Shown: positions 28,266 to 59,480 of the stretch, piece by piece
Layout of the letters: each line of letters begins with the position of its first letter
Numbering within the stretch: the first letter of the stretch is position 1
Assembly: GCA_949710005.1 (NCBI GenBank)
Contig: OX453287.1
Span: 2,554,305 to 2,618,304, forward strand
Reading direction: 5' to 3'
Length of the DNA: 64,000 bases
Source of the DNA: Ricordea florida
Taxonomy: Eukaryota; Cnidaria; Anthozoa; Corallimorpharia; Ricordeidae
Notes under the pieces: model-generated
What the model saw: only the letters and a program-made list of their open reading frames with translations
Database searches by the model: none
Told to the model about the DNA's origin: nothing
Program-made: the position numbers and the translations under genes

Positions 28266-28298
<33 letters not shown>

Positions 28299-28511
28299 TA
28301 AGGACAAGAGCGAAAATTAAAACAAGAAGAAAAGCACGGAGTACTGGAAGAACGTTTTGAAATAGTAAGCGAATAAAAGAACCTTCCAAGCAAATTTAAA
28401 AGAGTACGACCTAGGGCTTCGGATTAGTGACTGATTCATCAAGAGCGCAGTAATTCAGTAATTCCCCCTTGATTTCATTAACATGTAATCGCAATGGGCC
28501 ATGTAAAATTG

Positions 28512-28546
<35 letters not shown>

Positions 28547-31500
28547 CAATTTCAGCAACTTCTAAAAGCACGCGTGATATTTATCATTAATTTTAAAACG
28601 CCACACCTGAAACAAGGGTCAGTAAGACCTTTTTCATTACAGTCACGTCTTCCTCGAAATACCATTTTCCTTTTGGTATTTTATTAGCCCCTCTGAGATT
28701 TACGACAAGGAAAGACATACTGGATCGAAATCTCATCGCCATACCCGTCGGCAACTCAGTAAAACTGGACTGTTCAGCGAAGGGCTATCCACATCCCACT
28801 GTAAAATGGTACAAGGACGGAGTGTTATTCACACAGAGGAAAAATGCAAGGCTTTATTTGGGCACCCAGACAACTGTTTTAAGTATGAAAGACGTTGTAC
28901 CGAGTGATAGTGGGATGTATATGTGCAATGTCAGCAACCCTTATGGATGGATCAACCATTCCTACATGATTGATGTACATGGTAAGCAGAGACCGTTAAT
29001 TCTCTTTAAAAGCTTATACTCTAAATGCCAGATAAGAGAGCTAACTCGGTAAATTTTAAGTGCTGCAGATCACTTTCTGAAATTCTCAATGAGTTTCAGT
29101 CCTAGTATTGCTATGAGAAAATCAAAAACAGGTCTAGAAAAACGTTTTCAGAACTAAGTTGGAATCGAATCCACGATATCCGGAACAGACCTCCCTTTGG
29201 TCTCACTACAGGCCGATCGGGGAAAACAAAGGCGGCCTGATATTTGCAAGTGAACGCACGTTTGGTGGTGACATGTCTTACTTATCAGCCACTTGGACAA
29301 ACTAAGCGCCTTGACAGTCGTCAGCTTCTAAATGAAATGTCTACTTCGCACTGTCTTTCCTACAAGCTAGCTTTTGAAGAGCATTTTTGGGCGCAAAAGG
29401 ATATCTGTCTTTCTCTGCGTCTTTTCTGCTTATTGACTGTCGTGTTGATTCTTGTTTTCTCCTGTAGAACGAGTTCGTGCCAAGCCTGTGGTGCTGCCCA
29501 TGGAAAACGTTACTGTGTCAGAAGGCGATAATGCCACCATGTTGTGTAAGGCTTTAAGTGATTCCATGCCTCGCTTTCAATGGTTACGTTGGTTTCCATG
29601 GCGTTCAAGCGACTCCAGAAACGGCAGTCAGATTGAAAGTCCGCACTACGAAGTCATCAAACAAACCGAGCAGGACCCAAACGGGCGCCTCGTCCTACCA
29701 AAGAGTAACAAGAAATTTGATTTTCATGGCGTCAAGTTAACTCTTACTAATGTTACGAAAAAGGACGAAGGAAAATACACTTGCATTGTGGGAAATGCTG
29801 TTGGTTACGCTGTACAAGAAGCTTACCTCAAAGTTACATTGATTTCAGGTATGAGAATAGTTAACTGTTTCGTGACCATGGGTTTAGACACATAGAAATC
29901 ACGGCAAGGTGTCCACAAAAGACGTTGTCAGAAAAAAAACTTGACATTTCCCTTAGGAATTTCGCGACAATAGCGCTTGAACCCGCTGTGATAGGTCGAG
30001 AGTGGATGCCGAGAAATTCGGCTCAGTTTTCGGTACAATATAGCCAGCGGTTTCTAACAGAAGGTACGCTATATAAACTGCTAGATTGTGTCTTAAAGAA
30101 AAAAATCTGTCTAGGCTGTACAAGATACAGCAACGAGCTACCAAGTACATTTATGAGCAATAAATCGAGCATTAGCTGTGCAGAGTTAAAATTTGATTCA
30201 CTATAAAAAATTCAATGTAACTTTGCTTTTTAAAAATTAATATATTAATAAGAAAGTAATTAATAAATGCTATTACTGTCTGAAACCAAAGAGATAAAAT
30301 ATTCTGACAAAGTTGTTAAAAGTATCTAGATTTACCAGTGTTTTAGATGTCTAAAATGTTCTAATTTGTGCCTCAAAATACTGGATAATGAGTCTCAGAG
30401 AGTCTCGAAATTCAAAATTTTCTTGGGCGGCACGTCCCCAGACCACCCTAGAGGGCAAGCCATGTCATGCTTGCTTTGGCTGTTTCGCAATATTTTGCTG
30501 TACTGCGCCTTTCGCCATATCACGCCCCATGTGATTACCTTTACTAAATGCCACACCTGAAACACGGGTCAGTAAGACCTTTTTCATTACAGTCACGTCT
30601 TCCTCGAAATACCATTTTTCTTTTGGTATTTTATTAGCCCCTCTGAGATTTACGACAAGGAAAGACATACTGGATCGAAATCTCATCGCCATACCCGTCG
30701 GCAACTCGGTAAAACTGGACTGTTCAGCGAAGGGCTATCCACATCCCACTGTAAAATGGTACAAGGACGGAGTGTTATTCACACAGAGGAAAAATGGAAA
30801 GCTTTATTTGGGCACCAGGACAACTATTTTAAGTATGAAAGACGTTGTACCGAGTGATAGTGGGATGTATATGTGCAATGTCAGCAACCCTTATGGATGG
30901 ATCAACCATTCCTACATGATTGATGTACATGGTAAGCAGAGACCGTTAATTCTCTTTAAAAGCTTATACCGTCTAAATGCCAGATAAGAGAGCTAACTCG
31001 GTAAATTTTAAGTGCTGCAGATCACTTTCTGAAATTCTCAATGAGTTTCAGTCCTAGTATTGCTATGAGAAAATCAAAAACAGGTCTAGAAAAACGTTTT
31101 CAGAACTAAGTTGGAATCGAATCCACGATATCCGGAACAGACCTCCCTTTGGTCTCACTACAGGCCGATCGGGGAAAACAAAGGCGGCCTGATATTTGCA
31201 AGTGAACGCACGTTTGGTGGTGACATGTCTTACTTATCAGCCACTTGGACAAACTAAGCGCCTTGACAGTCGTCAGCTTCTAAATGAAATGTCTACTTCG
31301 CACTGTCTTTCCTACAAGCTAGCTTTTGAAGAGCATTTTTGGGCGCAAAAGGATATCTGTCTTTCTCTGCGTCTTTTCTGCTTATTGACTGTCGTGTTGA
31401 TTCTTGTTTTCTCCTGTAGAACGAGTTCGTGCCAAGCCTGTGGTGCTGCCCATGGAAAACGTTACTGTGTCAGAAGGCGATAATGCCACCATGTTGTGTA

Positions 31501-34500
31501 AGGCTTTAAGTGATTCCATGCCTCGCTTTCAATGGTTACGTTGGTTTCCATGGCGTTCAAGCGACTCCAGAAACGGCAGTCAGATTGAAAGTCCGCACTA
31601 CGAAGTCATCAAACAAACCGAGCAGGACCCAAACGGGCGCCTCGTCCTACCAAAGAGTAACAAGAAATTTGATTTTCATGGCGTCAAGTTAACTCTTACT
31701 AATGTTACGAAAAAGGACGAAGGAAAATACACTTGCATTGTGGGAAATGCTGTTGGTTACGCTGTACAAGAAGCTTACCTCAAAGTTACATTGATTTCAG
31801 GTATGAGAATAGTTAACTGTTTCGTGACCATGGGTTTAGACACATAGAAATCACGGCAAGGTGTCCACAAAAGACGTTGTCAGAAAAAAAACTTGACATT
31901 TCCCTTAGGAATTTCGCGACAATAGCGCTTGAACCCGCTGCGATAGGTCGAGAGTGGATGCCGAGAAATTCGGCTCAGTTTTCGGTACAATATAGCCAGC
32001 GGTTTCTAACAGAAGGTACGCTATATAAACTGCTAGATTGTGTCTTAAAGAAAAAAATCTGTCTAGGCTGTACAAGATACAGCAACGAGCTACCAAGTAC
32101 ATTTATGAGCAATAAATCGAGCATTAGCTGTGCAGAGTTAAAATTTGATTCACTATAAAAAATTCAATGTAACTTTGCTTTTTAAAAATTAATATATTAA
32201 TAAGAAAGTAATTAATAAATGCTATTACTGTCTGAAACCAAAGAGATAAAATATTCTGACAAAGTTGTTAAAAGTATCTAGATTTACCAGTGTTTTAGAT
32301 GTCTAAAATGTTCTAATTTGTGCCTCAAAATACTGGATAATGAGTCTCAGAGAGTCTCGAAATTCAAAATTTTCTTGGGCGGCACGTCCCCAGACCACCC
32401 TAGAGGGCAAGCCATGTCATGCTTGCTTTGGCTGTTTCGCAATATTTTGCTGTACTGCGCCTTTCGCCATATCACGCCCCATGTGATTACCTTTACTAAA
32501 TGCCACACCTGAAACACGGGTCAGTAAGACCTTTTTCATTACAGTCACGTCTTCCTCGAAATACCATTTTTCTTTTGGTATTTTATTAGCCCCTCTGAGA
32601 TTTACGACAAGGAAAGACATACTGGATCGAAATCTCATCGCCATACCCGTCGGCAACTCGGTAAAACTGGACTGTTCAGCGAAGGGCTATCCACATCCCA
32701 CTGTAAAATGGTACAAGGACGGAGTGTTATTCACACAGAGGAAAAATGGAAAGCTTTATTTGGGCACCAGGACAACTATTTTAAGTATGAAAGACGTTGT
32801 ACCGAGTGATAGTGGGATGTATATGTGCAATGTCAGCAACCCTTATGGATGGATCAACCATTCCTACATGATTGATGTACATGGTAAGCAGAGACCGTTA
32901 ATTCTCTTTAAAAGCTTATACCGTCTAAATGCCAGATAAGAGAGCTAACTCGGTAAATTTTAAGTGCTGCAGATCACTTTCTGAAATTCTCAATGAGTTT
33001 CAGTCCTAGTATTGCTATGAGAAAATCAAAAACAGGTCTAGAAAAACGTTTTCAGAACTAAGTTGGAATCGAATCCACGATATCCGGAACAGACCTCCCT
33101 TTGGTCTCACTACAGGCCGATCGGGGAAAACAAAGGCGGCCTGATATTTGCAAGTGAACGCACGTTTGGTGGTGACATGTCTTACTTATCAGCCACTTAG
33201 ACAAACTAAGCGCCTTGACAGTCGTCAGCTTCTAAATGAAATGTCTACTTCGCACTGTCTTTCCTACAAGCTAGCTTTTGAAGAGCATTTTTGGGCGCAA
33301 AAGGATATCTGTCTTTCTCTGCGTCTTTTCTGCTTATTGACTGTCGTGTTGATTCTTGTTTTCTCCTGTAGAACGAGTTCGTGCCAAGCCTGTGGTGCTG
33401 CCCATGGAAAACGTTACTGTGTCAGAAGGCGATAATGCCACCATGTTGTGTAAGGCTTTAAGTGATTCCATGCCTCGCTTTCAATGGTTACGTTGGTTTC
33501 CATGGCGTTCAAGCGACTCCAGAAACGGCAGTCAGATTGAAAGTCCGCACTACGAAGTCATCAAACAAACCGAGCAGGACCCAAACGGGCGCCTCGTCCT
33601 ACCAAAGAGTAACAAGAAATTTGATTTTCATGGCGTCAAGTTAACTCTTACTAATGTTACGAAAAAGGACGAAGGAAAATACACTTGCATTGTGGGAAAT
33701 GCTGTTGGTTACGCTGTACAAGAAGCTTACCTCAAAGTTACATTGATTTCAGGTATGAGAATAGTTAACTGTTTCGTGACCATGGGTTTAGACACATAGA
33801 AATCACGGCAAGGTGTCCACAAAAGACGTTGTCAGAAAAAAAACTTGACATTTCCCTTAGGAATTTCGCGACAATAGCGCTTGAACCCGCTGTGATAGGT
33901 CGAGAGTGGATGCCGAGAAATTCGGCTCAGTTTTCGGTACAATATAGCCAGCGGTTTCTAACAGAAGGTACGCTATATAAACTGCTAGATTGTGTCTTAA
34001 AGAAAAAAATCTGTCTAGGCTGTACAAGATACAGCAACGAGCTACCAAGTACATTTATGAGCAATAAATCGAGCATTAGCTGTGCAGAGTTAAAATTTGA
34101 TTCACTATAAAAAATTCAATGTAACTTTGCTTTTTAAAAATTAATATATTAATAAGAAAGTAATTAATAAATGCTATTACTGTCTGAAACCAAAGAGATA
34201 AAATATTCTGACAAAGTTGTTAAAAGTATCTAGATTTACCAGTGTTTTAGATGTCTAAAATGTTCTAATTTGTGCCTCAAAATACTGGATAATGAGTCTC
34301 AGAGAGTCTCGAAATTCAAAATTTTCTTGGGCGGCACGTCCCCAGACCACCCTAGAGGGCAAGCCATGTCATGCTTGCTTTGGCTGTTTCGCAATATTTT
34401 GCTGTACTGCGCCTTTCGCCATATCACGCCCCATGTGATTACCTTTACTAAATGCCACACCTGAAACACGGGTCAGTAAGACCTTTTTCATTACAGTCAC

Positions 34501-43500: not shown

Positions 43501-46500
43501 CATTGATTTCAGGTATGAGAATAGTTAACTGTTTCGTGACCATGGGTTTAGACACATAGAAATCACGGCAAGGTGTCCACAAAAGACGTTGTCAGAAAAA
43601 AAACTTGACATTTCCCTTAGGAATTTCGCGACAATAGCGCTTGAACCCGCTGCGATAGGTCGAGAGTGGATGCCGAGAAATTCGGCTCAGTTTTCGGTAC
43701 AATATAGCCAGCGGTTTCTAACAGAAGGTACGCTATATAAACTGCTAGATTGTGTCTTAAAGAAAAAAATCTGTCTAGGCTGTACAAGATACAGCAACGA
43801 GCTACCAAGTACATTTATGAGCAATAAATCGAGCATTAGCTGTGCAGAGTTAAAATTTGATTCACTATAAAAAATTCAATGTAACTTTGCTTTTTAAAAA
43901 TTAATATATTAATAAGAAAGTAATTAATAAATGCTATTACTGTCTGAAACCAAAGAGATAAAATATTCTGACAAAGTTGTTAAAAGTATCTAGATTTACC
44001 AGTGTTTTAGATGTCTAAAATGTTCTAATTTGTGCCTCAAAATACTGGATAATGAGTCTCAGAGAGTCTCGAAATTCAAAATTTTCTTGGGCGGCACGTC
44101 CCCAGACCACCCTAGAGAGCAAGCCATGTCATGCTTGCTTTGGCTGTTTCGCAATATTTTGCTGTACTGCGCCTTTCGCCATATCACGCCCCATGTGATT
44201 ACCTTTACTAAATGCCACACCTGAAACACGGGTCAGTAAGACCTTTTTCATTACAGTCACGTCTTCCTCGAAATACCATTTTTCTTTTGGTATTTTATTA
44301 GCCCCTCTGAGATTTACGACAAGGAAAGACATACTGGATCGAAATCTCATCGCCATACCCGTCGGCAACTCGGTAAAACTGGACTGTTCAGCGAAGGGCT
44401 ATCCACATCCCACTGTAAAATGGTACAAGGACGGAGTGTTATTCACACAGAGGAAAAATGGAAAGCTTTATTTGGGCACCAGGACAACTATTTTAAGTAT
44501 GAAAGACGTTGTACCGAGTGATAGTGGGATGTATATGTGCAATGTCAGCAACCCTTATGGATGGATCAACCATTCCTACATGATTGATGTACATGGTAAG
44601 CAGAGACCGTTAATTCTCTTTAAAAGCTTATACCGTCTAAATGCCAGATAAGAGAGCTAACTCGGTAAATTTTAAGTGCTGCAGATCACTTTCTGAAATT
44701 CTCAATGAGTTTCAGTCCTAGTATTGCTATGAGAAAATCAAAAACAGGTCTAGAAAAACGTTTTCAGAACTAAGTTGGAATCGAATCCACGATATCCGGA
44801 ACAGACCTCCCTTTGGTCTCACTACAGGCCGATCGGGGAAAACAAAGGCGGCCTGATATTTGCAAGTGAACGCACGTTTGGTGGTGACATGTCTTACTTA
44901 TCAGCCACTTAGACAAACTAAGCGCCTTGACAGTCGTCAGCTTCTAAATGAAATGTCTACTTCGCACTGTCTTTCCTACAAGCTAGCTTTTGAAGAGCAT
45001 TTTTGGGCGCAAAAGGATATCTGTCTTTCTCTGCGTCTTTTCTGCTTATTGACTGTCGTGTTGATTCTTGTTTTCTCCTGTAGAACGAGTTCGTGCCAAG
45101 CCTGTGGTGCTGCCCATGGAAAACGTTACTGTGTCAGAAGGCGATAATGCCACCATGTTGTGTAAGGCTTTAAGTGATTCCATGCCTCGCTTTCAATGGT
45201 TACGTTGGTTTCCATGGCGTTCAAGCGACTCCAGAAACGGCAGTCAGATTGAAAGTCCGCACTACGAAGTCATCAAACAAACCGAGCAGGACCCAAACGG
45301 GCGCCTCGTCCTACCAAAGAGTAACAAGAAATTTGATTTTCATGGCGTCAAGTTAACTCTTACTAATGTTACGAAAAAGGACGAAGGAAAATACACTTGC
45401 ATTGTGGGAAATGCTGTTGGTTACGCTGTACAAGAAGCTTACCTCAAAGTTACATTGATTTCAGGTATGAGAATAGTTAACTGTTTCGTGACCATGGGTT
45501 TAGACACATAGAAATCACGGCAAGGTGTCCACAAAAGACGTTGTCAGAAAAAAAACTTGACATTTCCCTTAGGAATTTCGCGACAATAGCGCTTGAACCC
45601 GCTGCGATAGGTCGAGAGTGGATGCCGAGAAATTCGGCTCAGTTTTCGGTACAATATAGCCAGCGGTTTCTAACAGAAGGTACGCTATATAAACTGCTAG
45701 ATTGTGTCTTAAAGAAAAAAATCTGTCTAGGCTGTACAAGATACAGCAACGAGCTACCAAGTACATTTATGAGCAATAAATCGAGCATTAGCTGTGCAGA
45801 GTTAAAATTTGATTCACTATAAAAAATTCAATGTAACTTTGCTTTTTAAAAATTAATATATTAATAAGAAAGTAATTAATAAATGCTATTACTGTCTGAA
45901 ACCAAAGAGATAAAATATTCTGACAAAGTTGTTAAAAGTATCTAGATTTACCAGTGTTTTAGATGTCTAAAATGTTCTAATTTGTGCCTCAAAATACTGG
46001 ATAATGAGTCTCAGAGAGTCTCGAAATTCAAAATTTTCTTGGGCGGCACGTCCCCAGACCACCCTAGAGGGCAAGCCATGTCATGCTTGCTTTGGCTGTT
46101 TCGCAATATTTTGCTGTACTGCGCCTTTCGCCATATCACGCCCCATGTGATTACCTTTACTAAATGCCACACCTGAAACACGGGTCAGTAAGACCTTTTT
46201 CATTACAGTCACGTCTTCCTCGAAATACCATTTTTCTTTTGGTATTTTATTAGCCCCTCTGAGATTTACGACAAGGAAAGACATACTGGATCGAAATCTC
46301 ATCGCCATACCCGTCGGCAACTCGGTAAAACTGGACTGTTCAGCGAAGGGCTATCCACATCCCACTGTAAAATGGTACAAGGACGGAGTGTTATTCACAC
46401 AGAGGAAAAATGGAAAGCTTTATTTGGGCACCAGGACAACTATTTTAAGTATGAAAGACGTTGTACCGAGTGATAGTGGGATGTATATGTGCAATGTCAG

Positions 46501-49500
46501 CAACCCTTATGGATGGATCAACCATTCCTACATGATTGATGTACATGGTAAGCAGAGACCGTTAATTCTCTTTAAAAGCTTATACCGTCTAAATGCCAGA
46601 TAAGAGAGCTAACTCGGTAAATTTTAAGTGCTGCAGATCACTTTCTGAAATTCTCAATGAGTTTCAGTCCTAGTATTGCTATGAGAAAATCAAAAACAGG
46701 TCTAGAAAAACGTTTTCAGAACTAAGTTGGAATCGAATCCACGATATCCGGAACAGACCTCCCTTTGGTCTCACTACAGGCCGATCGGGGAAAACAAAGG
46801 CGGCCTGATATTTGCAAGTGAACGCACGTTTGGTGGTGACATGTCTTACTTATCAGCCACTTAGACAAACTAAGCGCCTTGACAGTCGTCAGCTTCTAAA
46901 TGAAATGTCTACTTCGCACTGTCTTTCCTACAAGCTAGCTTTTGAAGAGCATTTTTGGGCGCAAAAGGATATCTGTCTTTCTCTGCGTCTTTTCTGCTTA
47001 TTGACTGTCGTGTTGATTCTTGTTTTCTCCTGTAGAACGAGTTCGTGCCAAGCCTGTGGTGCTGCCCATGGAAAACGTTACTGTGTCAGAAGGCGATAAT
47101 ACCACCATGTTGTGTAAGGCTTTAAGTGATTCCATGCCTCGCTTTCAATGGTTACGTTGGTTTCCATGGCGTTCAAGCGACTCCAGAAACGGCAGTCAGA
47201 TTGAAAGTCCGCACTACGAAGTCATCAAACAAACCGAGCAGGACCCAAACGGGCGCCTCGTCCTACCAAAGAGTAACAAGAAATTTGATTTTCATGGCGT
47301 CAAGTTAACTCTTACTAATGTTACGAAAAAGGACGAAGGAAAATACACTTGCATTGTGGGAAATGCTGTTGGTTACGCTGTACAAGAAGCTTACCTCAAA
47401 GTTACATTGATTTCAGGTATGAGAATAGTTAACTGTTTCGTGACCATGGGTTTAGACACATAGAAATCACGGCAAGGTGTCCACAAAAGACGTTGTCAGA
47501 AAAAAAACTTGACATTTCCCTTAGGAATTTCGCGACAATAGCGCTTGAACCCGCTCCGATAGGTCGAGAGTGGATGCCGAGAAATTCGGCTCAGTTTTCG
47601 GTACAATATAGCCAGCGGTTTCTAACAGAAGGTACGCTATATAAACTGCTAGATTGTGTCTTAAAGAAAAAAATCTGTCTAGGCTGTACAAGATACAGCA
47701 ACGAGCTACCAAGTACATTTATGAGCAATAAATCGAGCATTAGCTGTGCAGAGTTAAAATTTGATTCACTATAAAAAATTCAATGTAACTTTGCTTTTTA
47801 AAAATTAATATATTAATAAGAAAGTAATTAATAAATGCTATTACTGTCTGAAACCAAAGAGATAAAATATTCTGACAAAGTTGTTAAAAGTATCTAGATT
47901 TACCAGTGTTTTAGATGTCTAAAATGTTCTAATTTGTGCCTCAAAATACTGGATAATGAGTCTCAGAGAGTCTCGAAATTCAAAATTTTCTTGGGCGGCA
48001 CGTCCCCAGACCACCCTAGAGGGCAAGCCATGTCATGCTTGCTTTGGCTGTTTCGCAATATTTTGCTGTACTGCGCCTTTCGCCATATCACGCCCCATGT
48101 GATTACCTTTACTAAATGCCACACCTGAAACACGGGTCAGTAAGACCTTTTTCATTACAGTCACGTCTTCCTCGAAATACCATTTTTCTTTTGGTATTTT
48201 ATTAGCCCCTCTGAGATTTACGACAAGGAAAGACATACTGGATCGAAATCTCATCGCCATACCCGTCGGCAACTCGGTAAAACTGGACTGTTCAGCGAAG
48301 GGCTATCCACATCCCACTGTAAAATGGTACAAGGACGGAGTGTTATTCACACAGAGGAAAAATGGAAAGCTTTATTTGGGCACCAGGACAACTATTTTAA
48401 GTATGAAAGACGTTGTACCGAGTGATAGTGGGATGTATATGTGCAATGTCAGCAACCCTTATGGATGGATCAACCATTCCTACATGATTGATGTACATGG
48501 TAAGCAGAGACCGTTAATTCTCTTTAAAAGCTTATACCGTCTAAATGCCAGATAAGAGAGCTAACTCGGTAAATTTTAAGTGCTGCAGATCACTTTCTGA
48601 AATTCTCAATGAGTTTCAGTCCTAGTATTGCTATGAGAAAATCAAAAACAGGTCTAGAAAAACGTTTTCAGAACTAAGTTGGAATCGAATCCACGATATC
48701 CGGAACAGACCTCCCTTTGGTCTCACTACAGGCCGATCGGGGAAAACAAAGGCGGCCTGATATTTGCAAGTGAACGCACGTTTGGTGGTGACATGTCTTA
48801 CTTATCAGCCACTTAGACAAACTAAGCGCCTTGACAGTCGTCAGCTTCTAAATGAAATGTCTACTTCGCACTGTCTTTCCTACAAGCTAGCTTTTGAAGA
48901 GCATTTTTGGGCGCAAAAGGATATCTGTCTTTCTCTGCGTCTTTTCTGCTTATTGACTGTCGTGTTGATTCTTGTTTTCTCCTGTAGAACGAGTTCGTGC
49001 CAAGCCTGTGGTGCTGCCCATGGAAAACGTTACTGTGTCAGAAGGCGATAATACCACCATGTTGTGTAAGGCTTTAAGTGATTCCATGCCTCGCTTTCAA
49101 TGGTTACGTTGGTTTCCATGGCGTTCAAGCGACTCCAGAAACGGCAGTCAGATTGAAAGTCCGCACTACGAAGTCATCAAACAAACCGAGCAGGACCCAA
49201 ACGGGCGCCTCGTCCTACCAAAGAGTAACAAGAAATTTGATTTTCATGGCGTCAAGTTAACTCTTACTAATGTTACGAAAAAGGACGAAGGAAAATACAC
49301 TTGCATTGTGGGAAATGCTGTTGGTTACGCTGTACAAGAAGCTTACCTCAAAGTTACATTGATTTCAGGTATGAGAATAGTTAACTGTTTCGTGACCATG
49401 GGTTTAGACACATAGAAATCACGGCAAGGTGTCCACAAAAGACGTTGTCAGAAAAAAAACTTGACATTTCCCTTAGGAATTTCGCGACAATAGCGCTTGA

Positions 49501-52500
49501 ACCCGCTGCGATAGGTCGAGAGTGGATGCCGAGAAATTCGGCTCAGTTTTCGGTACAATATAGCCAGCGGTTTCTAACAGAAGGTACGCTATATAAACTG
49601 CTAGATTGTGTCTTAAAGAAAAAAATCTGTCTAGGCTGTACAAGATACAGCAACGAGCTACCAAGTACATTTATGAGCAATAAATCGAGCATTAGCTGTG
49701 CAGAGTTAAAATTTGATTCACTATAAAAAATTCAATGTAACTTTGCTTTTTAAAAATTAATATATTAATAAGAAAGTAATTAATAAATGCTATTACTGTC
49801 TGAAACCAAAGAGATAAAATATTCTGACAAAGTTGTTAAAAGTATCTAGATTTACCAGTGTTTTAGATGTCTAAAATGTTCTAATTTGTGCCTCAAAATA
49901 CTGGATAATGAGTCTCAGAGAGTCTCGAAATTCAAAATTTTCTTGGGCGGCACGTCCCCAGACCACCCTAGAGGGCAAGCCATGTCATGCTTGCTTTGGC
50001 TGTTTCGCAATATTTTGCTGTACTGCGCCTTTCGCCATATCACGCCCCATGTGATTACCTTTACTAAATGCCACACCTGAAACACGGGTCAGTAAGACCT
50101 TTTTCATTACAGTCACGTCTTCCTCGAAATACCATTTTTCTTTTGGTATTTTATTAGCCCCTCTGAGATTTACGACAAGGAAAGACATACTGGATCGAAA
50201 TCTCATCGCCATACCCGTCGGCAACTCGGTAAAACTGGACTGTTCAGCGAAGGGCTATCCACATCCCACTGTAAAATGGTACAAGGACGGAGTGTTATTC
50301 ACACAGAGGAAAAATGGAAAGCTTTATTTGGGCACCAGGACAACTATTTTAAGTATGAAAGACGTTGTACCGAGTGATAGTGGGATGTATATGTGCAATG
50401 TCAGCAACCCTTATGGATGGATCAACCATTCCTACATGATTGATGTACATGGTAAGCAGAGACCGTTAATTCTCTTTAAAAGCTTATACCGTCTAAATGC
50501 CAGATAAGAGAGCTAACTCGGTAAATTTTAAGTGCTGCAGATCACTTTCTGAAATTCTCAATGAGTTTCAGTCCTAGTATTGCTATGAGAAAATCAAAAA
50601 CAGGTCTAGAAAAACGTTTTCAGAACTAAGTTGGAATCGAATCCACGATATCCGGAACAGACCTCCCTTTGGTCTCACTACAGGCCGATCGGGGAAAACA
50701 AAGGCGGCCTGATATTTGCAAGTGAACGCACGTTTGGTGGTGACATGTCTTACTTATCAGCCACTTAGACAAACTAAGCGCCTTGACAGTCGTCAGCTTC
50801 TAAATGAAATGTCTACTTCGCACTGTCTTTCCTACAAGCTAGCTTTTGAAGAGCATTTTTGGGCGCAAAAGGATATCTGTCTTTCTCTGCGTCTTTTCTG
50901 CTTATTGACTGTCGTGTTGATTCTTGTTTTCTCCTGTAGAACGAGTTCGTGCCAAGCCTGTGGTGCTGCCCATGGAAAACGTTACTGTGTCAGAAGGCGA
51001 TAATGCCACCATGTTGTGTAAGGCTTTAAGTGATTCCATGCCTCGCTTTCAATGGTTACGTTGGTTTCCATGGCGTTCAAGCGACTCCAGAAACGGCAGT
51101 CAGATTGAAAGTCCGCACTACGAAGTCATCAAACAAACCGAGCAGGACCCAAACGGGCGCCTCGTCCTACCAAAGAGTAACAAGAAATTTGATTTTCATG
51201 GCGTCAAGTTAACTCTTACTAATGTTACGAAAAAGGACGAAGGAAAATACACTTGCATTGTGGGAAATGCTGTTGGTTACGCTGTACAAGAAGCTTACCT
51301 CAAAGTTACATTGATTTCAGGTATGAGAATAGTTAACTGTTTCGTGACCATGGGTTTAGACACATAGAAATCACGGCAAGGTGTCCACAAAAGACGTTGT
51401 CAGAAAAAAAACTTGACATTTCCCTTAGGAATTTCGCGACAATAGCGCTTGAACCCGCTGCGATAGGTCGAGAGTGGATGCCGAGAAATTCGGCTCAGTT
51501 ATCGGTACAATATAGCCAGCGGTTTCTAACAGAAGGTACGCTATATAAACTGCTAGATTGTGTCTTAAAGAAAAAAATCTGTCTAGGCTGTACAAGATAC
51601 AGCAACGAGCTACCAAGTACATTTATGAGCAATAAATCGAGCATTAGCTGTGCAGAGTTAAAATTTGATTCACTATAAAAAATTCAATGTAACTTTGCTT
51701 TTTAAAAATTAATATATTAATAAGAAAGTAATTAATAAATGCTATTACTGTCTGAAACCAAAGAGATAAAATATTCTGACAAAGTTGTTAAAAGTATCTA
51801 GATTTACCAGTGTTTTAGATGTCTAAAATGTTCTAATTTGTGCCTCAAAATACTGGATAATGAGTCTCAGAGAGTCTCGAAATTCAAAATTTTCTTGGGC
51901 GGCACGTCCCCAGACCACCCTAGAGGGCAAGCCATGTCATGCTTGCTTTGGCTGTTTCGCAATATTTTGCTGTACTGCGCCTTTCGCCATATCACGCCCC
52001 ATGTGATTACCTTTACTAAATGCCACACCTGAAACACGGGTCAGTAAGACCTTTTTCATTACAGTCACGTCTTCCTCGAAATACCATTTTTCTTTTGGTA
52101 TTTTATTAGCCCCTCTGAGATTTACGACAAGGAAAGACATACTGGATCGAAATCTCATCGCCATACCCGTCGGCAACTCGGTAAAACTGGACTGTTCAGC
52201 GAAGGGCTATCCACATCCCACTGTAAAATGGTACAAGGACGGAGTGTTATTCACACAGAGGAAAAATGGAAAGCTTTATTTGGGCACCAGGACAACTATT
52301 TTAAGTATGAAAGACGTTGTACCGAGTGATAGTGGGATGTATATGTGCAATGTCAGCAACCCTTATGGATGGATCAACCATTCCTACATGATTGATGTAC
52401 ATGGTAAGCAGAGACCGTTAATTCTCTTTAAAAGCTTATACCGTCTAAATGCCAGATAAGAGAGCTAACTCGGTAAATTTTAAGTGCTGCAGATCACTTT

Positions 52501-55500: not shown

Positions 55501-58500
55501 ATACAGCAACGAGCTACCAAGTACATTTATGAGCAATAAATCGAGCATTAGCTGTGCAGAGTTAAAATTTGATTCACTATAAAAAATTCAATGTAACTTT
55601 GCTTTTTAAAAATTAATATATTAATAAGAAAGTAATTAATAAATGCTATTACTGTCTGAAACCAAAGAGATAAAATATTCTGACAAAGTTGTTAAAAGTA
55701 TCTAGATTTACCAGTGTTTTAGATGTCTAAAATGTTCTAATTTGTGCCTCAAAATACTGGATAATGAGTCTCAGAGAGTCTCGAAATTCAAAATTTTCTT
55801 GGGCGGCACGTCCCCAGACCACCCTAGAGGGCAAGCCATGTCATGCTTGCTTTGGCTGTTTCGCAATATTTTGCTGTACTGCGCCTTTCGCCATATCACG
55901 CCCCATGTGATTACCTTTACTAAATGCCACACCTGAAACACGGGTCAGTAAGACCTTTTTCATTACAGTCACGTCTTCCTCGAAATACCATTTTTCTTTT
56001 GGTATTTTATTAGCCCCTCTGAGATTTACGACAAGGAAAGACATACTGGATCGAAATCTCATCGCCATACCCGTCGGCAACTCGGTAAAACTGGACTGTT
56101 CAGCGAAGGGCTATCCACATCCCACTGTAAAATGGTACAAGGACGGAGTGTTATTCACACAGAGGAAAAATGGAAAGCTTTATTTGGGCACCAGGACAAC
56201 TATTTTAAGTATGAAAGACGTTGTACCGAGTGATAGTGGGATGTATATGTGCAATGTCAGCAACCCTTATGGATGGATCAACCATTCCTACATGATTGAT
56301 GTACATGGTAAGCAGAGACCGTTAATTCTCTTTAAAAGCTTATACCGTCTAAATGCCAGATAAGAGAGCTAACTCGGTAAATTTTAAGTGCTGCAGATCA
56401 CTTTCTGAAATTCTCAATGAGTTTCAGTCCTAGTATTGCTATGAGAAAATCAAAAACAGGTCTAGAAAAACGTTTTCAGAACTAAGTTGGAATCGAATCC
56501 ACGATATCCGGAACAGACCTCCCTTTGGTCTCACTACAGGCCGATCGGGGAAAACAAAGGCGGCCTGATATTTGCAAGTGAACGCACGTTTGGTGGTGAC
56601 ATGTCTTACTTATCAGCCACTTAGACAAACTAAGCGCCTTGACAGTCGTCAGCTTCTAAATGAAATGTCTACTTCGCACTGTCTTTCCTACAAGCTAGCT
56701 TTTGAAGAGCATTTTTGGGCGCAAAAGGATATCTGTCTTTCTCTGCGTCTTTTCTGCTTATTGACTGTCGTGTTGATTCTTGTTTTCTCCTGTAGAACGA
56801 GTTCGTGCCAAGCCTGTGGTGCTGCCCATGGAAAACGTTACTGTGTCAGAAGGCGATAATGCCACCATGTTGTGTAAGGCTTTAAGTGATTCCATGCCTC
56901 GCTTTCAATGGTTACGTTGGTTTCCATGGCGTTCAAGCGACTCCAGAAACGGCAGTCAGATTGAAAGTCCGCACTACGAAGTCATCAAACAAACCGAGCA
57001 GGACCCAAACGGGCGCCTCGTCCTACCAAAGAGTAACAAGAAATTTGATTTTCATGGCGTCAAGTTAACTCTTACTAATGTTACGAAAAAGGACGAAGGA
57101 AAATACACTTGCATTGTGGGAAATGCTGTTGGTTACGCTGTACAAGAAGCTTACCTCAAAGTTACATTGATTTCAGGTATGAGAATAGTTAACTGTTTCG
57201 TGACCATGGGTTTAGACACATAGAAATCACGGCAAGGTGTCCACAAAAGACGTTGTCAGAAAAAAAACTTGACATTTCCCTTAGGAATTTCGCGACAATA
57301 GCGCTTGAACCCGCTGCGATAGGTCGAGAGTGGATGCCGAGAAATTCGGCTCAGTTATCGGTACAATATAGCCAGCGGTTTCTAACAGAAGGTACGCTAT
57401 ATAAACTGCTAGATTGTGTCTTAAAGAAAAAAATCTGTCTAGGCTGTACAAGATACAGCAACGAGCTACCAAGTACATTTATGAGCAATAAATCGAGCAT
57501 TAGCTGTGCAGAGTTAAAATTTGATTCACTATAAAAAATTCAATGTAACTTTGCTTTTTAAAAATTAATATATTAATAAGAAAGTAATTAATAAATGCTA
57601 TTACTGTCTGAAACCAAAGAGATAAAATATTCTGACAAAGTTGTTAAAAGTATCTAGATTTACCAGTGTTTTAGATGTCTAAAATGTTCTAATTTGTGCC
57701 TCAAAATACTGGATAATGAGTCTCAGAGAGTCTCGAAATTCAAAATTTTCTTGGGCGGCACGTCCCCAGACCACCCTAGAGGGCAAGCCATGTCATGCTT
57801 GCTTTGGCTGTTTCGCAATATTTTGCTGTACTGCGCCTTTCGCCATATCACGCCCCATGTGATTACCTTTACTAAATGCCACACCTGAAACACGGGTCAG
57901 TAAGACCTTTTTCATTACAGTCACGTCTTCCTCGAAATACCATTTTTCTTTTGGTATTTTATTAGCCCCTCTGAGATTTACGACAAGGAAAGACATACTG
58001 GATCGAAATCTCATCGCCATACCCGTCGGCAACTCGGTAAAACTGGACTGTTCAGCGAAGGGCTATCCACATCCCACTGTAAAATGGTACAAGGACGGAG
58101 TGTTATTCACACAGAGGAAAAATGGAAAGCTTTATTTGGGCACCAGGACAACTATTTTAAGTATGAAAGACGTTGTACCGAGTGATAGTGGGATGTATAT
58201 GTGCAATGTCAGCAACCCTTATGGATGGATCAACCATTCCTACATGATTGATGTACATGGTAAGCAGAGACCGTTAATTCTCTTTAAAAGCTTATACCGT
58301 CTAAATGCCAGATAAGAGAGCTAACTCGGTAAATTTTAAGTGCTGCAGATCACTTTCTGAAATTCTCAATGAGTTTCAGTCCTAGTATTGCTATGAGAAA
58401 ATCAAAAACAGGTCTAGAAAAACGTTTTCAGAACTAAGTTGGAATCGAATCCACGATATCCGGAACAGACCTCCCTTTGGTCTCACTACAGGCCGATCGG

Positions 58501-59128
58501 GGAAAACAAAGGCGGCCTGATATTTGCAAGTGAACGCACGTTTGGTGGTGACATGTCTTACTTATCAGCCACTTAGACAAACTAAGCGCCTTGACAGTCG
58601 TCAGCTTCTAAATGAAATGTCTACTTCGCACTGTCTTTCCTACAAGCTAGCTTTTGAAGAGCATTTTTGGGCGCAAAAGGATATCTGTCTTTCTCTGCGT
58701 CTTTTCTGCTTATTGACTGTCGTGTTGATTCTTATTTTCTCCTGTAGAACGAGTTCGTGCCAAGCCTGTGGTGCTGCCCATGGAAAACGTTACTGTGTCA
58801 GAAGGCGATAATGCCACCATGTTGTGTAAGGCTTTAAGTGATTCCATGCCTCGCTTTCAATGGTTACGTTGGTTTCCATGGCGTTCAAGCGACTCCAGAA
58901 ACGGCAGTCAGATTGAAAGTCCGCACTACGAAGTCATCAAACAAACCGAGCAGGACCCAAACGGGCACCTCGTCCTACCAAAGAGTAACAAGAAATTTGA
59001 TTTTCATGGCGTCAAGTTAACTCTTACTAATGTTACGAAAAAGGACGAAGGAAAATACACTTGCATTGTGGGAAATGCTGTTGGTTACGCTGTACAAGAA
59101 ACTTACCTCAAAGTTACATTGATTTCAG
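21415..59128 (+). CDS. FGFR: FGF-receptor-like gene, extracellular exons (3' partial)
   Basis: Visible order: signal-peptide exon (21415-21490), Ig D1 exon (26793-27077), 36-nt linker exon (27770-27805), then 16 alternating D2 and D3 exons in a tandem array. All internal exons begin and end in phase 1, so they join in frame in any number. FGFRs bind FGF and heparan sulfate through D2-D3 and signal through a cytoplasmic tyrosine kinase. D2 here has the FGFR signature VVPSDSGMY plus NPYGWINHSYMIDV, and D3 has FQW, TNVTKKDEGKYTC and GNAVGYAVQEAYL. No transmembrane or kinase exon is present up to 64000. The gene therefore either continues beyond the window or ends as a secreted form (FGFRL1-like or a soluble decoy). 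The span given runs from start codon to last supported exon and is not one continuous frame. Confidence 0.85.
21860..22430. repeat. Decayed interspersed repeats with TTCGAAAAT words
   Basis: CCATTCGACGAAATTTTCG near 21877 is echoed by CTCGTGTTCCATTC near 22010 and by CCATTCGACACCGAAATT at 22365. It suggests an old foldback element and a second fragment of the same kind. Boundaries are uncertain. Confidence 0.45.
23628..23735. repeat. Near-perfect 53-bp-arm palindrome
   Basis: The arms at 23628-23680 and 23683-23735 are reverse complements with a single mismatch (CAGCCG against CGACTG) and only two bases (GT) between them. The 12-base direct repeat GGATTTCTATAG flanks it (23619-23630 and 23736-23747), as expected for a target duplication. 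It is probably a compact foldback element; the DNA could extrude a cruciform. Confidence 0.92.
24491..24703. mobile_element. Foldback MITE with TAGCCTGCGAACAGG termini
   Basis: The left end TAGCCTGCGAACAGGCTCCC and the right end GGGAGCCTGTTCGCAGGCTA are exact reverse complements. The interior is GC-rich, with GCGAGCGGGACGAGCC and repeated ATTCGCTTCGCTC words, unlike its AT-rich surroundings. Confidence 0.88.
24979..25004. repeat. 12-bp-arm hairpin
   Basis: CAGGAGCCCATC and GATGGGCTCCTG are exact reverse complements around GT. Confidence 0.8.
26345..26555. repeat. C-run-rich low-complexity sequence
   Basis: Several C runs of 6-18 bases alternate with GACATGCCCCCC, GATGGCCCCC and similar words. 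It looks like a decayed repeat and is prone to sequencing error. Confidence 0.6.
26793..27077 (+). CDS. FGFR: FGFR-like exon: Ig domain D1
   Basis: Acceptor TTTTTGTAG ends at 26792 and the donor GTGAGT starts at 27078; the exon is phase 1-1 and encodes 95 residues. It forms one I-set Ig domain: Cys24 (RLPCLV), Trp39 (YRWDKN), then the Asp71-x-Gly-x-Tyr-x-Cys77 motif (DTGKYTCVV). The opening PQGHKIRLPC resembles the start of D1 in FGFRs. D1 is known to be autoinhibitory and dispensable for FGF binding. The frame stays open past the donor into intron sequence until 27157, but the donor is strong and the Ig fold is complete before it. The closing strand is TRKFTLDLYIN. Confidence 0.9.
27311..27370. 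repeat. 19-bp-arm hairpin
   Basis: CCCTTTAAACCCCGACTCC and GGAGTCGGGGTTTGAAGGG are reverse complements with one mismatch, around 22 bases. Confidence 0.8.
27380..27720. repeat. Diverged copy of the 106-bp satellite in an FGFR-like intron
   Basis: About three units with TTTGATCCACAG, GATGAAAAAG, AGAACCACACTGTATAGT and CAGTACAGTACTGTTCAG, clearly the same family as 10805-13330, in the same orientation and more diverged. Confidence 0.88.
27770..27805 (+). CDS. FGFR: FGFR-like linker micro-exon
   Basis: Acceptor ATTTTCTAG ends at 27769; donor GTAAGA starts at 27806. The 36-nt exon is phase 1-1 and encodes G-PTRHQENKSAI. It sits where FGFRs have the D1-D2 linker. The vertebrate linker carries an acidic box; this segment is polar but not acidic. 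The splice sites are good and the phase fits, but a 12-residue exon cannot be proven by sequence alone. Skipping it would also keep the frame. Confidence 0.6.
   Translation, partial: VQQGIRKTNRQ
27806..28687 (+). other. FGFR-like intron before the array
   Basis: It contains a relict of a KIAA1958/Crypton-like gene (28252-28434). The homology shared with array units begins at 28601 (CCACACCTGAAAC). Confidence 0.7.
28252..28434 (+). pseudogene. Relict N-terminus of a KIAA1958/Crypton-like gene
   Basis: From the ATG at 28252 the frame reads MASRCEIVDEEYIEEFKDKS, then after a stop KKKSTEYWKNVLK, and after two more stops FQANLKEYDLGL. The pattern (a short acidic start, K-K-S-T, W-K-N-V, then F-Q-A-N-L-x-E-Y) is the N-terminus of the KIAA1958-like/DUF3504 tyrosine-recombinase relatives that are abundant in coral genomes. 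Stops at 28318, 28363 and 28366 break it, and nothing of the family follows 28434. It is a decayed fragment inside an intron. The family call is from memory of its typical N-terminus. Confidence 0.5.
28688..28981 (+). CDS. FGFR: FGFR-like D2 exon, copy 1
   Basis: Acceptor TTTTATTAG ends at 28687 and donor GTAAGC starts at 28982; phase 1-1, 98 residues. Ig landmarks are Cys29 (KLDCSAKG), Trp41 (VKWYKDG) and Asp74-x-Gly-x-Tyr-x-Cys80 (SDSGMYMC). VVPSD and NPYGWINHSYMIDV match the FGFR D2 signature (VVPSDxGNYTC, then YGSINHTYxLDV in vertebrates). D2 carries heparin- and FGF-binding surfaces in known FGFRs. Sequons are NVS and NHS. This copy differs from all later ones at four residues: Ala54, Arg55, Gln61 and Val64 in place of Gly, Lys, Arg and Ile. 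Confidence 0.93.
28982..29467 (+). other. D2-D3 intron of unit 1 (repeated in every unit)
   Basis: A GT-AG intron whose acceptor tract ends TTTTCTCCTGTAG. On the minus strand, 29150-29225 carries a tRNA-like pol III promoter pattern (B-box-like GATTCGATTCC, an A-box-like TAGTGAGACC upstream and a T run downstream). It may be an old SINE; I do not call a tRNA gene. Open frames in this intron are chance. Confidence 0.6.
29468..29848 (+). CDS. FGFR: FGFR-like D3 exon, copy 1
   Basis: Acceptor CTCCTGTAG ends at 29467; donor GTATGA starts at 29849; phase 1-1, 127 residues. It encodes a whole Ig domain: Cys27 (TMLCKALSD), Trp39 (RFQWLRW), Asp100-x-Gly-x-Tyr-x-Cys106 (DEGKYTCIV), then GNAVGYAVQEAYLKV. 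This parallels FGFR D3 (VCKVYSD, IQWIKH, RNVTFEDAGEYTC, GNSIGISFHSAWLTV). Vertebrate FGFRs split D3 between a constant exon and alternative IIIb/IIIc exons; here one exon encodes it all. The segment between Trp39 and Asp100 is longer than in vertebrates (WFPWRSSDSRNGS and KSNKKFDFHG). There are several N-glycosylation sequons (NVT, NAT, NGS, NVT). Confidence 0.93.
29849..30637 (+). other. Spacer intron between units (repeated 15 times)
   Basis: It links D3 of one unit to D2 of the next, with donor GTATGA and acceptor TTATTAG. About 650 bp of it (roughly 29895-30550) has no counterpart left of copy 1 or right of copy 16. No exon is seen in it. Confidence 0.8.
30638..31800 (+). CDS. FGFR: FGFR-like D2+D3 cassette, copy 2
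   Basis: D2 exon 30638-30931, D3 exon 31420-31800, same splice sites and phases as copy 1. D2 has the Gly54-Lys55-Arg61-Ile64 version found in all later copies. D3 is identical to copy 1. Intron marker CACTTGGAC; following spacer marker GCTGCGAT. Confidence 0.92.
32590..33752 (+). CDS. FGFR: FGFR-like D2+D3 cassette, copy 3
   Basis: D2 exon 32590-32883, D3 exon 33372-33752. Protein identical to copy 2. Intron marker CACTTAGAC; the following spacer has GCTGTGAT, shared only with the spacer after copy 1. Confidence 0.92.
34542..35704 (+). CDS. FGFR: FGFR-like D2+D3 cassette, copy 4
   Basis: D2 exon 34542-34835, D3 exon 35324-35704. Protein identical to copy 2. Intron marker CACTTGGAC, shared with copies 1 and 2; spacer marker GCTGCGAT. 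Confidence 0.92.
36494..37656 (+). CDS. FGFR: FGFR-like D2+D3 cassette, copy 5
   Basis: D2 exon 36494-36787, D3 exon 37276-37656. Protein identical to copy 2. Intron marker CACTTAGAC, as in all later copies; spacer GCTGCGAT. Confidence 0.92.
38446..39608 (+). CDS. FGFR: FGFR-like D2+D3 cassette, copy 6
   Basis: D2 exon 38446-38739, D3 exon 39228-39608. No difference from copy 5 seen at the marker sites. Confidence 0.92.
40398..41560 (+). CDS. FGFR: FGFR-like D2+D3 cassette, copy 7
   Basis: D2 exon 40398-40691, D3 exon 41180-41560. No difference from copy 5 seen at the marker sites. Confidence 0.92.
42350..43512 (+). CDS. FGFR: FGFR-like D2+D3 cassette, copy 8
   Basis: D2 exon 42350-42643, D3 exon 43132-43512. 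Exons as copy 5. The spacer that follows has a private change, CCTAGAGAGCAAG in place of CCTAGAGGGCAAG (near 44111). Confidence 0.92.
44302..45464 (+). CDS. FGFR: FGFR-like D2+D3 cassette, copy 9
   Basis: D2 exon 44302-44595, D3 exon 45084-45464. No difference from copy 5 seen at the marker sites. Confidence 0.92.
46254..47416 (+). CDS. FGFR: FGFR-like D2+D3 cassette, copy 10
   Basis: D2 exon 46254-46547, D3 exon 47036-47416. D3 has Thr23 in place of Ala (DNTTM), which keeps the glycosylation sequon. The spacer has GCTCCGAT, shared only with the spacer after copy 13. Confidence 0.92.
48206..49368 (+). CDS. FGFR: FGFR-like D2+D3 cassette, copy 11
   Basis: D2 exon 48206-48499, D3 exon 48988-49368. 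D3 has Thr23; the spacer has GCTGCGAT. Same combination as copy 14. Confidence 0.92.
50158..51320 (+). CDS. FGFR: FGFR-like D2+D3 cassette, copy 12
   Basis: D2 exon 50158-50451, D3 exon 50940-51320. D3 has Ala23; the spacer has CAGTTATCGG in place of CAGTTTTCGG. Same combination as copy 15. Confidence 0.92.
52110..53272 (+). CDS. FGFR: FGFR-like D2+D3 cassette, copy 13
   Basis: D2 exon 52110-52403, D3 exon 52892-53272. D3 has Thr23; the spacer has GCTCCGAT, matching copy 10. Confidence 0.92.
54062..55224 (+). CDS. FGFR: FGFR-like D2+D3 cassette, copy 14
   Basis: D2 exon 54062-54355, D3 exon 54844-55224. D3 has Thr23; the spacer has GCTGCGAT, matching copy 11. Confidence 0.92.
56014..57176 (+). 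CDS. FGFR: FGFR-like D2+D3 cassette, copy 15
   Basis: D2 exon 56014-56307, D3 exon 56796-57176. D3 has Ala23; the spacer has CAGTTATCGG, matching copy 12. This is the last unit with a full spacer after it. Confidence 0.92.
57966..59128 (+). CDS. FGFR: FGFR-like D2+D3 cassette, copy 16 (last)
   Basis: D2 exon 57966-58259, D3 exon 58748-59128. D2 is identical to copies 2-15. D3 has two private changes, Arg74 to His (NGHLVLP) and Ala119 to Thr (VQETYLK). The acceptor tract has CTTATTTTCTCC in place of CTTGTTTTCTCC. The donor GTATGA is intact at 59129, so splicing to a further phase-1 exon is expected; similarity to the array ends about 45 bases later. Confidence 0.92.
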
Positions 59129-59288
59129 GTATGAGAATAGTTAACTGTTTTGTGACAATGGGTTTAGACAGATGGATTTCAGTGTTTTCAAAATCAACCG
59201 TCCGTGCCCTCGCATCCAACGGCAAATTTTCGATTTGCGATGCCAACTTTGCGTTGGGAAGATAATAAAATGAATAAAACTTTTGATA

Positions 59289-59480
59289 AAAGAAAGGGTA
59301 AACGCAGCAGTTTTGCAACCATCGAGTTATGGACGCACTTGGGTTGTTTGCTAAGCAGTCGAGAAGCTAGAAATGCTCTCGGCTGCGCTTCGGGCATCTC
59401 TTTTGCTTCTTTCGTGATTAGCAACCTCCCGCGTGCCTCCATAACTCGATGGTTGGCCGCTGCACGTTTACCATTTCTTC
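59289..59480. mobile_element. Foldback MITE right of the array
   Basis: GGTAAACG-CAGC...CAACCATCGAGTTATGG on the left is mirrored by CCATAACTCGATGGTTGG...GCACGTTTACC on the right. The arms are ~45 bp with some mismatches. There is no ORF of note. Confidence 0.75.

What the first reader, a model, noticed from the sequence alone, without database searches (positions are those of the whole stretch)
28601..59172. Sixteen tandem FGFR D2-D3 exon cassettes in one receptor gene
Seen: 16 D2 and 16 D3 exons at a fixed 1,952-bp period, all open, all with intact AG acceptors and GT donors, downstream of a single signal-peptide exon and a single D1 exon. Known: FGFRs have three Ig domains, and D2-D3 form the ligand-binding unit. 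Inference: the gene could make a giant multi-Ig receptor (225 residues per cassette, ~3,600 from the array), use one cassette per transcript, or act as a decoy. I know of no described FGFR with such an array.
Basis: partly seen in the sequence, partly recalled or inferred. Interest (0 to 1): 0.92.

Follow-up and report, generated by a model that had tools for sequence, protein, structure and literature searches.

The report
Kinase-less FGF-receptor gene, sixteen-fold repeated
In what looks like a coral or close relative, a copy of a growth-factor-receptor gene has lost its signalling half and carries its ligand-binding part sixteen times over in near-identical copies, so it may make a giant soluble decoy, or it may be a decaying duplicate.

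Summary
The array is real in the assembly: 16 D2 and 16 D3 exons, all open, all with AG/GT sites, phase 1, D3 period exactly 1,952 bp, internal units about 99.9% identical. Just beyond it (about 9-26 kb past copy 16) lies an apparently complete, single-cassette FGFR gene (B) with transmembrane and kinase exons. The array gene (A) is an upstream tandem duplicate of B, by the simplest history truncated at birth inside the kinase, which then lost its transmembrane and first kinase exons. The one kinase exon found in it carries a stop codon. So it is not a signalling receptor. The best reading is a coding VNTR on a catalytically dead duplicate, built like LPA beside plasminogen, that could yield a secreted multi-D2-D3 FGF-binding protein. 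No RNA could be examined, and the selection evidence is mixed. A three-cassette Acropora protein and a two-cassette Exaiptasia one, both kinase-less and filed as hemicentins, show serial joining in gene models; trees make these separate events. I found no description in print in the searches run. Copy number is unverified by reads.

The parts
16345..29897 (+). 5' half of array gene A, homologous to the 5' half of the downstream FGFR gene B (60,072-77,119 on the window scale; B continues past the window end)
   Evidence: blastn self-comparison, blocks of 72-96% identity in order, with gaps between them
21415..21490 (+). Signal-peptide exon of gene A (MFQLMETVLFISTALLLMRDAEPCS, phase 1)
   Evidence: hydrophobic start found in both A and B, donor GT
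26793..27077 (+). D1 (Ig I) exon of gene A
   Evidence: open, AG/GT, phase 1; 90.7% identical to D1 of B over the 97 residues compared; Pfam Ig domains
27770..27805 (+). 36-nt box exon between D1 and D2 (PTRHQENKSAI)
   Evidence: AG/GT, phase 1, conserved in B; matches the FGFRL1 exon order of PMC2754479 (passages)
28586..59176 (+). Tandem array: 15.67 units of 1,952 bp, 16 D2 + 16 D3 exons
28688..28981 (+). D2 exon of copy 1, the most divergent D2
   Evidence: 8 differences in 441 aligned bp of the copy-1 left part
29468..29848 (+). D3 exon of copy 1
29904..30459 (+). Interspersed repeat inside each inter-cassette intron (units 1-15)
   Evidence: 42 rows, 15 of them the array; the other 27 rows are 25 separate places at 78-96% identity, on many contigs; 40 of 62 candidates were scored, so a lower bound
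30458..30525 (+). 68 bp from the kinase K4-K5 intron (94% to B 80,903-80,970), indicating that the kinase-side deletion preceded amplification
46166..52021 (+). Copies 10-12, identical unit by unit to copies 13-15 (a three-unit duplication)
   Evidence: unit classes [10,13], [11,14], [12,15]
58748..59128 (+). D3 exon of copy 16 (last)
   Evidence: differs from the common cassette at R->H and A->T
59129..59265 (+). Possible terminal read-through: past the copy-16 donor the frame ends at 59,263-59,265, with AATAAA at 59,264 and 59,273
   Evidence: A[AT]TAAA is not enriched in the unit (2 found, 2.9 expected from mononucleotide shuffles), so this is only a possibility
59286..59824 (+). Remnant of the kinase region, homologous to B 81,328-81,867
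   Evidence: 90.4% identity
59574..59644 (+). Broken kinase exon [22 protein letters not shown] (B: [23 protein letters not shown])
   Evidence: 7 of 71 bases differ, in-frame stop
59834..64000 (+). Start of the second duplicated segment (gene B side; B exons lie beyond the window)
   Evidence: 59,834-59,918 matches 15,997-16,083 (81.6%) and follows directly on A's tail: read as the tandem-duplication junction

Best explanation
Shown by sequence comparison: gene A is a tandem duplicate of FGFR gene B; A has B's 5' half through D3 and a scrap of B's kinase region, no TM exon found, and a 1,952-bp unit with D2+D3 repeated to 16 near-identical copies. Simplest history (inferred): the duplicated segment ended in the intron after kinase exon K5, so A never had a full kinase; a deletion then removed TM to K4 and a mobile-element-like repeat inserted in the intron after D3; the D2+D3 pair was amplified recently, in blocks of one to three units. 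Function (inferred): A is transcribed from the duplicated FGFR upstream region, the symmetric phase-1 exons are joined in series, and the product, ending at or soon after the last D3, is a secreted protein with up to 33 Ig domains (1 D1 + 32) that binds FGF and competes with B. Its copy number should vary between individuals, as in the LPA kringle VNTR. My split: origin about 0.9; expressed serial secreted product about 0.45.
For: Gene B with SP, D1, D2, D3, TM and kinase through K6 joins to 701 codons without a stop, and further kinase C-lobe exons follow. A/B homology runs in order from about 16.0 kb to D3, and from the kinase tail to the start of B. Kinase remnant exon: 7 of 71 bases changed, with a stop. 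In A's ecto exons (copy 1) 35 of 1,072 bases differ from B with 0 indels, against 309 of 4,267 bases and 37 indels in eight non-coding stretches chosen as alignable; chance of no frameshift and no stop on the A branch under neutrality 0.009. An Acropora millepora protein (P0005, 674 aa) has three D2-D3 cassettes in series (the first cut short at its start) and no kinase; an Exaiptasia protein (P0012, 785 aa) has two. Kinase-less FGFR paralogues are listed for Oculina, Pocillopora, Stylophora and Porites. Aiptasia is reported to have 30 FGFR gene models against three in Nematostella (PMC4772690, passages).
Against: No RNA or protein from this species was available. Pairwise Ka/Ks of A and B is 0.52-0.56 overall and 1.04 for SP+D1+box. 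Of 25 residue differences, 14 fall on A, 6 on B and 5 are undecided by majority of 14 relatives; four A changes (and one B change) hit residues invariant in those 14: relaxed constraint on A. Gene conversion from B could also have kept A open. No TM exon and no clear terminal exon was found; one weak TM-like candidate at 62,819 has no homology support. The units are too alike (six variable sites, one exonic) for the amplification itself to show selection.
Confidence: 0.45

Rival explanations
1. Gene A is a non-functional, decaying duplicate whose D2-D3 segment happened to expand as a neutral minisatellite-like VNTR; open frames persist because the expansion is very young and copied an intact unit.
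For: Units 2-15 differ by 0.078%, about 90-fold less than A from B in non-coding DNA (7.2%), so one intact unit explains all 16. Kinase remnant is broken. SP+D1+box Ka/Ks is 1.04; A took 14 of 20 polarised residue changes and has no identified 3' end.
Against: SP, D1, box, D2 and D3 of A have no indel or stop since the split (P about 0.009 for no frameshift and no stop if neutral), and D2+D3 Ka/Ks is 0.36. Related serial cassettes sit in gene models of other anthozoans.
Confidence: 0.33
2. The copy number is an assembly artefact: a shorter array was inflated by walking a repeat loop more than once.
For: Copies 10-12 equal 13-15 exactly, copies 2 and 4 are identical, and copies 5, 6, 7 and 9 are identical, a pattern a graph loop would also give. 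Reads could not be examined.
Against: Units 2-15 fall into seven distinct types; with the two distinct end units that needs at least nine units if the variants are real. The longest exact internal repeat is 7,232 bp, within the span of common long reads (read length recalled; the technology of this assembly is unknown). Multi-unit unequal exchange gives the same pattern.
Confidence: 0.12
3. A reads through into B: transcripts skip B's first exon and join the array to B's D1-D2-D3-TM-kinase, giving a membrane receptor with a giant ectodomain.
For: The A and B ecto exons are phase 1, so copy-16 D3 to B D1 keeps frame; B's SP exon is a first exon and would be skipped. Distance 14.8 kb.
Against: B has its own SP exon and duplicated upstream DNA; no transcript evidence; the broken kinase exon and several polyadenylation-like hexamers lie between.
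Confidence: 0.05
4. One cassette per transcript (mutually exclusive use).
For: In the four of copies 1-15 that I translated past the donor (1, 2, 8, 15), retained intron ends in a stop within about 45 nt (GMRIVNCFVTMGLDT*), so a copy could in principle be terminal.
Against: Cassettes are nearly identical, so choice makes almost no diversity; docking or selector sequences were not sought; the Acropora and Exaiptasia models join cassettes in series.
Confidence: 0.05

Closest known systems
LPA (apolipoprotein(a)) kringle IV-2 repeat beside plasminogen
   Same: Duplicate of a catalytic gene that flanks it; catalytic half inactivated; a two-exon binding module amplified in tandem copies, with a secreted product (PMC7613587, passages; PMC11462820, abstract start: 5.6 kb per unit, 1-40 units).
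   Different: Different domains and pathway; here the catalytic half is mostly deleted rather than mutated; copy-number polymorphism and expression are unknown.
FGFRL1 / kinase-less FGFR-like genes of anthozoans
   Same: SP, IgI, box, IgII, IgIII exons, phase 1, no kinase; decoy role proposed (PMC2754479, passages). That paper places Nematostella FGFRL1 with the same species' FGFRb; here kinase-less paralogues also group near their own species' FGFRs where both were held, as in Oculina.
   Different: Those listed have one D2-D3; by eye most end in a TM with a short tail (P0014-P0016, P0023, P0024), others in LDLa-like repeats (P0013) or TIR (P0025) (Pfam accessions, module names recalled). A has 16 D2-D3 and no TM found.
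Acropora millepora P0005 'hemicentin-1-like' and Exaiptasia P0012 'Hemicentin-2'
   Same: FGFR D2-D3 cassettes in series, no kinase.
   Different: Three and two cassettes; separate origin by tree; named hemicentin by the annotators.
FGFR expansion in Aiptasia (Exaiptasia)
   Same: 30 FGFR gene models reported against three in Nematostella, with a scaffold holding seven of them together with FGFs (PMC4772690, passages).
   Different: Gene-level expansion; the passages seen do not mention cassette arrays or kinase loss.
Dscam-type exon arrays (recalled)
   Same: Arrays of Ig exons in one gene.
   Different: Dscam exons are diverse and mutually exclusive; these are near-identical and symmetric in phase.

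Membership tests
FGFR (receptor tyrosine kinase) | FGFR-type D1, box, D2, D3 ectodomain exons | tested here: met
FGFR (receptor tyrosine kinase) | Transmembrane segment and tyrosine kinase in the same gene | tested here: not met
   Not found in A; one broken kinase exon left; both are present in neighbour B
FGFRL1-like kinase-less receptor | Three-Ig exon order with phase-1 junctions, no kinase | tested here: met
FGFRL1-like kinase-less receptor | Sixth exon with TM and short tail | tested here: not met
   No homologous tail for A in the 264-kb region, while the TM piece of P0001 did find B's TM exon; none in the genome for one tail (no positive control); an acceptor/hydropathy scan of 59.1-68.5 kb (phase 1, pyrimidine tract 65% or more) gave 14 candidates, one weakly TM-like without homology
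LPA-type coding VNTR on a dead duplicate | Tandem duplicate next to an intact catalytic parent | tested here: met
LPA-type coding VNTR on a dead duplicate | Catalytic part disabled | tested here: met
LPA-type coding VNTR on a dead duplicate | Frame-neutral multi-exon module in near-identical tandem copies | tested here: met
LPA-type coding VNTR on a dead duplicate | Copy-number polymorphism and secreted product | not testable with these tools
   One assembly only; no RNA, protein or population data
Dscam-type mutually exclusive exon array | Diverse alternative exons | tested here: not met
   Units 2-15 differ at six sites; 16 cassettes, 4 sequences

The most novel reading that the evidence does not exclude
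Anthozoans repeatedly turn kinase-less copies of an FGFR gene into secreted strings of D2-D3 units, and in this species the string is a hypervariable coding VNTR of about 16 near-identical cassettes: a natural multivalent FGF trap whose valency is set by copy number.
Probability: 0.27. Interest if true: 0.87.

Novelty: new variant of a known kind. Interest (0 to 1): 0.62.

Why it matters
It would be an invertebrate parallel to LPA and plasminogen, in a core developmental pathway: a dead enzyme duplicate with an amplified binding module. It gives a directly testable case of receptor-ligand valency set by copy number. It also suggests that anthozoan FGFR loci give rise to kinase-less paralogues that annotation files as hemicentin or FGFRL1. 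If A proves silent, it is still a clear example of how a coding VNTR starts.

Tried and rejected
A TM/tail exon for A was sought with pieces of ten anthozoan proteins over the 264-kb region (the TM piece of P0001 found B's TM exon and nothing in A), with one tail over the genome (no positive control) and by an acceptor/hydropathy scan: nothing convincing. Another close array elsewhere in the genome: the cassette search gave 138 matches, those of 85% identity or more all in A or B, the rest 44% or less; it scored 150 of 666 candidates, so counts are lower bounds. Naming the species failed: the paper search for the assembly size gave 0 papers; the best full-length protein match is Oculina patagonica, 66% over 99%. 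Literature on FGFR cassette arrays. From these I looked at passages of PMC2754479, PMC12360431 (FGFR-like genes named in expression clusters, nothing on their structure in the passages shown) and PMC4772690 (FGFR expansion in Aiptasia); the rest I saw as listings only; (FGFR, cnidaria, hemicentin) gave 0. An LPA search was made for comparison. Pfam on two upstream ORFs gave nothing. A plasmid-collection search with one unit gave no match.
Full report
Setting. The window is C16:2,554,305-2,618,304 of an unnamed 537.8-Mb genome in 48 contigs. The FGFR protein of gene B is closest to those of stony corals (Oculina 66%, Montipora 62% over the full query); full-length anemone FGFRs are at 53% (Exaiptasia, Actinia), and a partial Nematostella protein is at 60% over 79% of the query. 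The host is probably a coral or close relative; the species is unknown. Coordinates past 64,000 continue the window scale over the following loci.

Observation. The 1,952-bp period stands alone (95.4% self-identity against 29.4% for the next of the offsets 1,500-2,599). Repeat homology covers 28,586-59,176. All 16 D2 (294 nt) and all 16 D3 (381 nt) are open with AG/GT, phase 1 on both sides. The copy-1 D2 lies 1,950, not 1,952, before the copy-2 D2. The exon search used fixed splice contexts, so uniform splice sites are partly built into the match; that it succeeded for 32 of 32 exons is the finding.

Youth of the array. Units 2-15 vary at six positions (one in D3, five non-coding) and average 1.52 differences per unit pair, 0.078%. 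A and B differ by 7.2% in eight non-coding stretches, so the array's internal spread is about 90 times smaller than the split of the two genes. Copies 10-12 match 13-15 unit for unit, copies 2 and 4 are identical, and so are 5, 6, 7 and 9: growth by multi-unit exchange, or an assembly loop. The longest exact internal repeat, over shifts of whole units, is 7,232 bp.

The neighbour. Gene B lies at about 68.5-84.8 kb (SP 68,513-68,588; D1 73,970-74,254; box 75,053-75,088; D2 75,971-76,264; D3 76,690-77,070; TM plus first kinase part 77,166-77,687; K2 to K6 78,946-82,102), with C-lobe exons at 83,150-83,257 and 83,632-83,736 by tblastn and a tail exon to about 84.8 kb by reading. It has one D2-D3 and a kinase with HRDLAARN and DFG motifs. 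It is the only FGFR-type kinase found in the 264 kb examined, apart from A's broken exon.

How A was made. A's 5' part and B's 5' part are homologous in order from about 16.0 kb and 59.8 kb. A's tail 59,286-59,824 equals B 81,328-81,867, and B-side upstream homology to A begins at 59,834, directly behind it. The simplest history is a tandem duplication whose right end fell in the intron after K5, so A lacked the end of the kinase from birth. The inter-cassette intron holds 49 bp of the D3-TM intron, then an interspersed repeat of about 556 bp (25 places outside the array at 78-96%, a lower bound), then 68 bp of B's K4-K5 intron, then the D2 upstream sequence. So the TM-to-K4 deletion came before the amplification of units 1-15. 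Copy 16 lacks the repeat and joins by about 110 bp of unassigned sequence to the kinase remnant. The remnant exon carries a stop.

Is A kept by selection? Mixed. For: no indel and no stop in 1,072 exonic bases (35 substitutions, copy 1 against B) against 37 indels (25 not a multiple of three) and 309 substitutions in 4,267 aligned non-coding bases from eight stretches that I chose as alignable; Fisher P 4.6e-7 for substitutions; probability 0.0096 of no indel, 0.043 of no frameshift, 0.20 of no stop, 0.009 for the last two together on a neutral A branch. The kinase remnant exon, with 7 of 71 changed, evolves faster than the ecto exons (P 0.012). Against: pairwise Ka/Ks 0.52-0.56, SP+D1+box 1.04, D2+D3 0.36; residue changes 14 on A, 6 on B, 5 undecided by majority among 14 relatives that I picked from P0001-P0024; the D2-D3 tree gives B a zero-length end branch and A a stem of 0.052. 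Changes P135L, V227I, H266R and N278S in A hit positions invariant in those 14, and so does G98A in B; N278S removes an N-x-S motif. B's own constraint and gene conversion confound the pairwise figures.

Relatives. Three protein searches returned 57, 43 and 56 proteins. P0005 of Acropora millepora, named hemicentin-1-like, is three D2-D3 cassettes in a row (the first cut short at its start) without a kinase and, by eye, without a TM; P0012 of Exaiptasia, named Hemicentin-2, has two after other Ig domains. P0012 and the Exaiptasia FGFR P0007 come from contigs of the same length (711,861), as do the Oculina FGFR and its kinase-less paralogues (46,518,285) and two Stylophora proteins (172,518); this suggests, not proves, shared contigs. 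Aiptasia is reported to hold 30 FGFR models against three in Nematostella, with a scaffold of elevated diversity carrying seven (PMC4772690, passages). In a tree of 31 cassettes the window's array groups with its own B (100/100), Acropora's with an unnamed FGFR near Montipora (100/99), and Exaiptasia's first cassette with its own FGFR (91/78); Exaiptasia's second cassette sits on a very long branch (1.06). Holding A with Acropora, A with Exaiptasia, or Acropora with Exaiptasia together is rejected; the groups were named after the tree was seen, and the long branch weakens the two Exaiptasia tests. Separate origin is the plain reading; within-species gene conversion could imitate it.

Mechanism. 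Shown: anatomy, and homology to B. Inferred from exon symmetry and from the serial joins in the two gene models: series splicing. Inferred from the missing TM: secretion. Much of the 5 kb upstream of A's start is duplicated with B, so a promoter is likely but unproven. The ligand step rests on FGFR family knowledge; binding was not tested, and I did not test conservation of FGF-contact residues.

Known or new. The passages on LPA (PMC7613587) describe a plasminogen duplicate, flanked by plasminogen, protease inactivated, with a two-exon kringle repeated in a coding CNV. The plan matches except for expression and polymorphism, which I could not test. FGFRL1 passages (PMC2754479) give the phase-1 exon plan and the decoy proposal. 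I found no account of FGFR D2-D3 arrays in the searches run (passages of three papers, otherwise listings; the held library omits most subscription papers).

Noticed in passing
10,835-13,164: Minisatellite of 22 copies of a 106-bp unit (93% matches), with diverged relatives in the D1-box introns of both A (27,365-27,734) and B (about 74.5-75.0 kb).
   Followed up: partly
1,578-2,862: Two open stretches that by recall resemble the C-terminal part of the ubiquitin ligase KCMF1, so a gene end may lie there; Pfam found no family.
   Followed up: partly
G000 C16:2,783,700-2,789,100 (L025-L026): A more distant FGFR-like gene with D1, D2 and D3 exons (about 31-37% identity) and no kinase exon found in the 264 kb examined; further FGFR-like Ig hits to 2.925 Mb suggest a cluster.
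   Followed up: partly
G000, many contigs: A protein-kinase domain in 37 rows of one and the same score, mostly in a 298-aa frame (once in a 3,589-aa frame), as if carried by a mobile element; also eight near-equal rows in 645-768-aa frames. 140 of 1,466 candidates were scored.
   Followed up: no
G000 C15:6.94-7.48 Mb, C1:41.08-41.37 Mb, C7:4.29-4.36 Mb, C2:16.65-16.69 Mb: Clusters of Ig-domain hits to the cassette query, C15 with repeated 385-aa frames and C2 with frames up to 1,521 aa: possible tandem Ig families.
   Followed up: no
protein P0025 (Stylophora pistillata): An FGFR D2-D3 unit followed by a TIR domain in one gene model; fusion or misannotation not resolved.
   Followed up: no
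62,819-62,949: Weak TM-like open stretch behind a pyrimidine-rich acceptor (42 aa, best 19-residue hydropathy 1.77), no homology support.
   Followed up: partly
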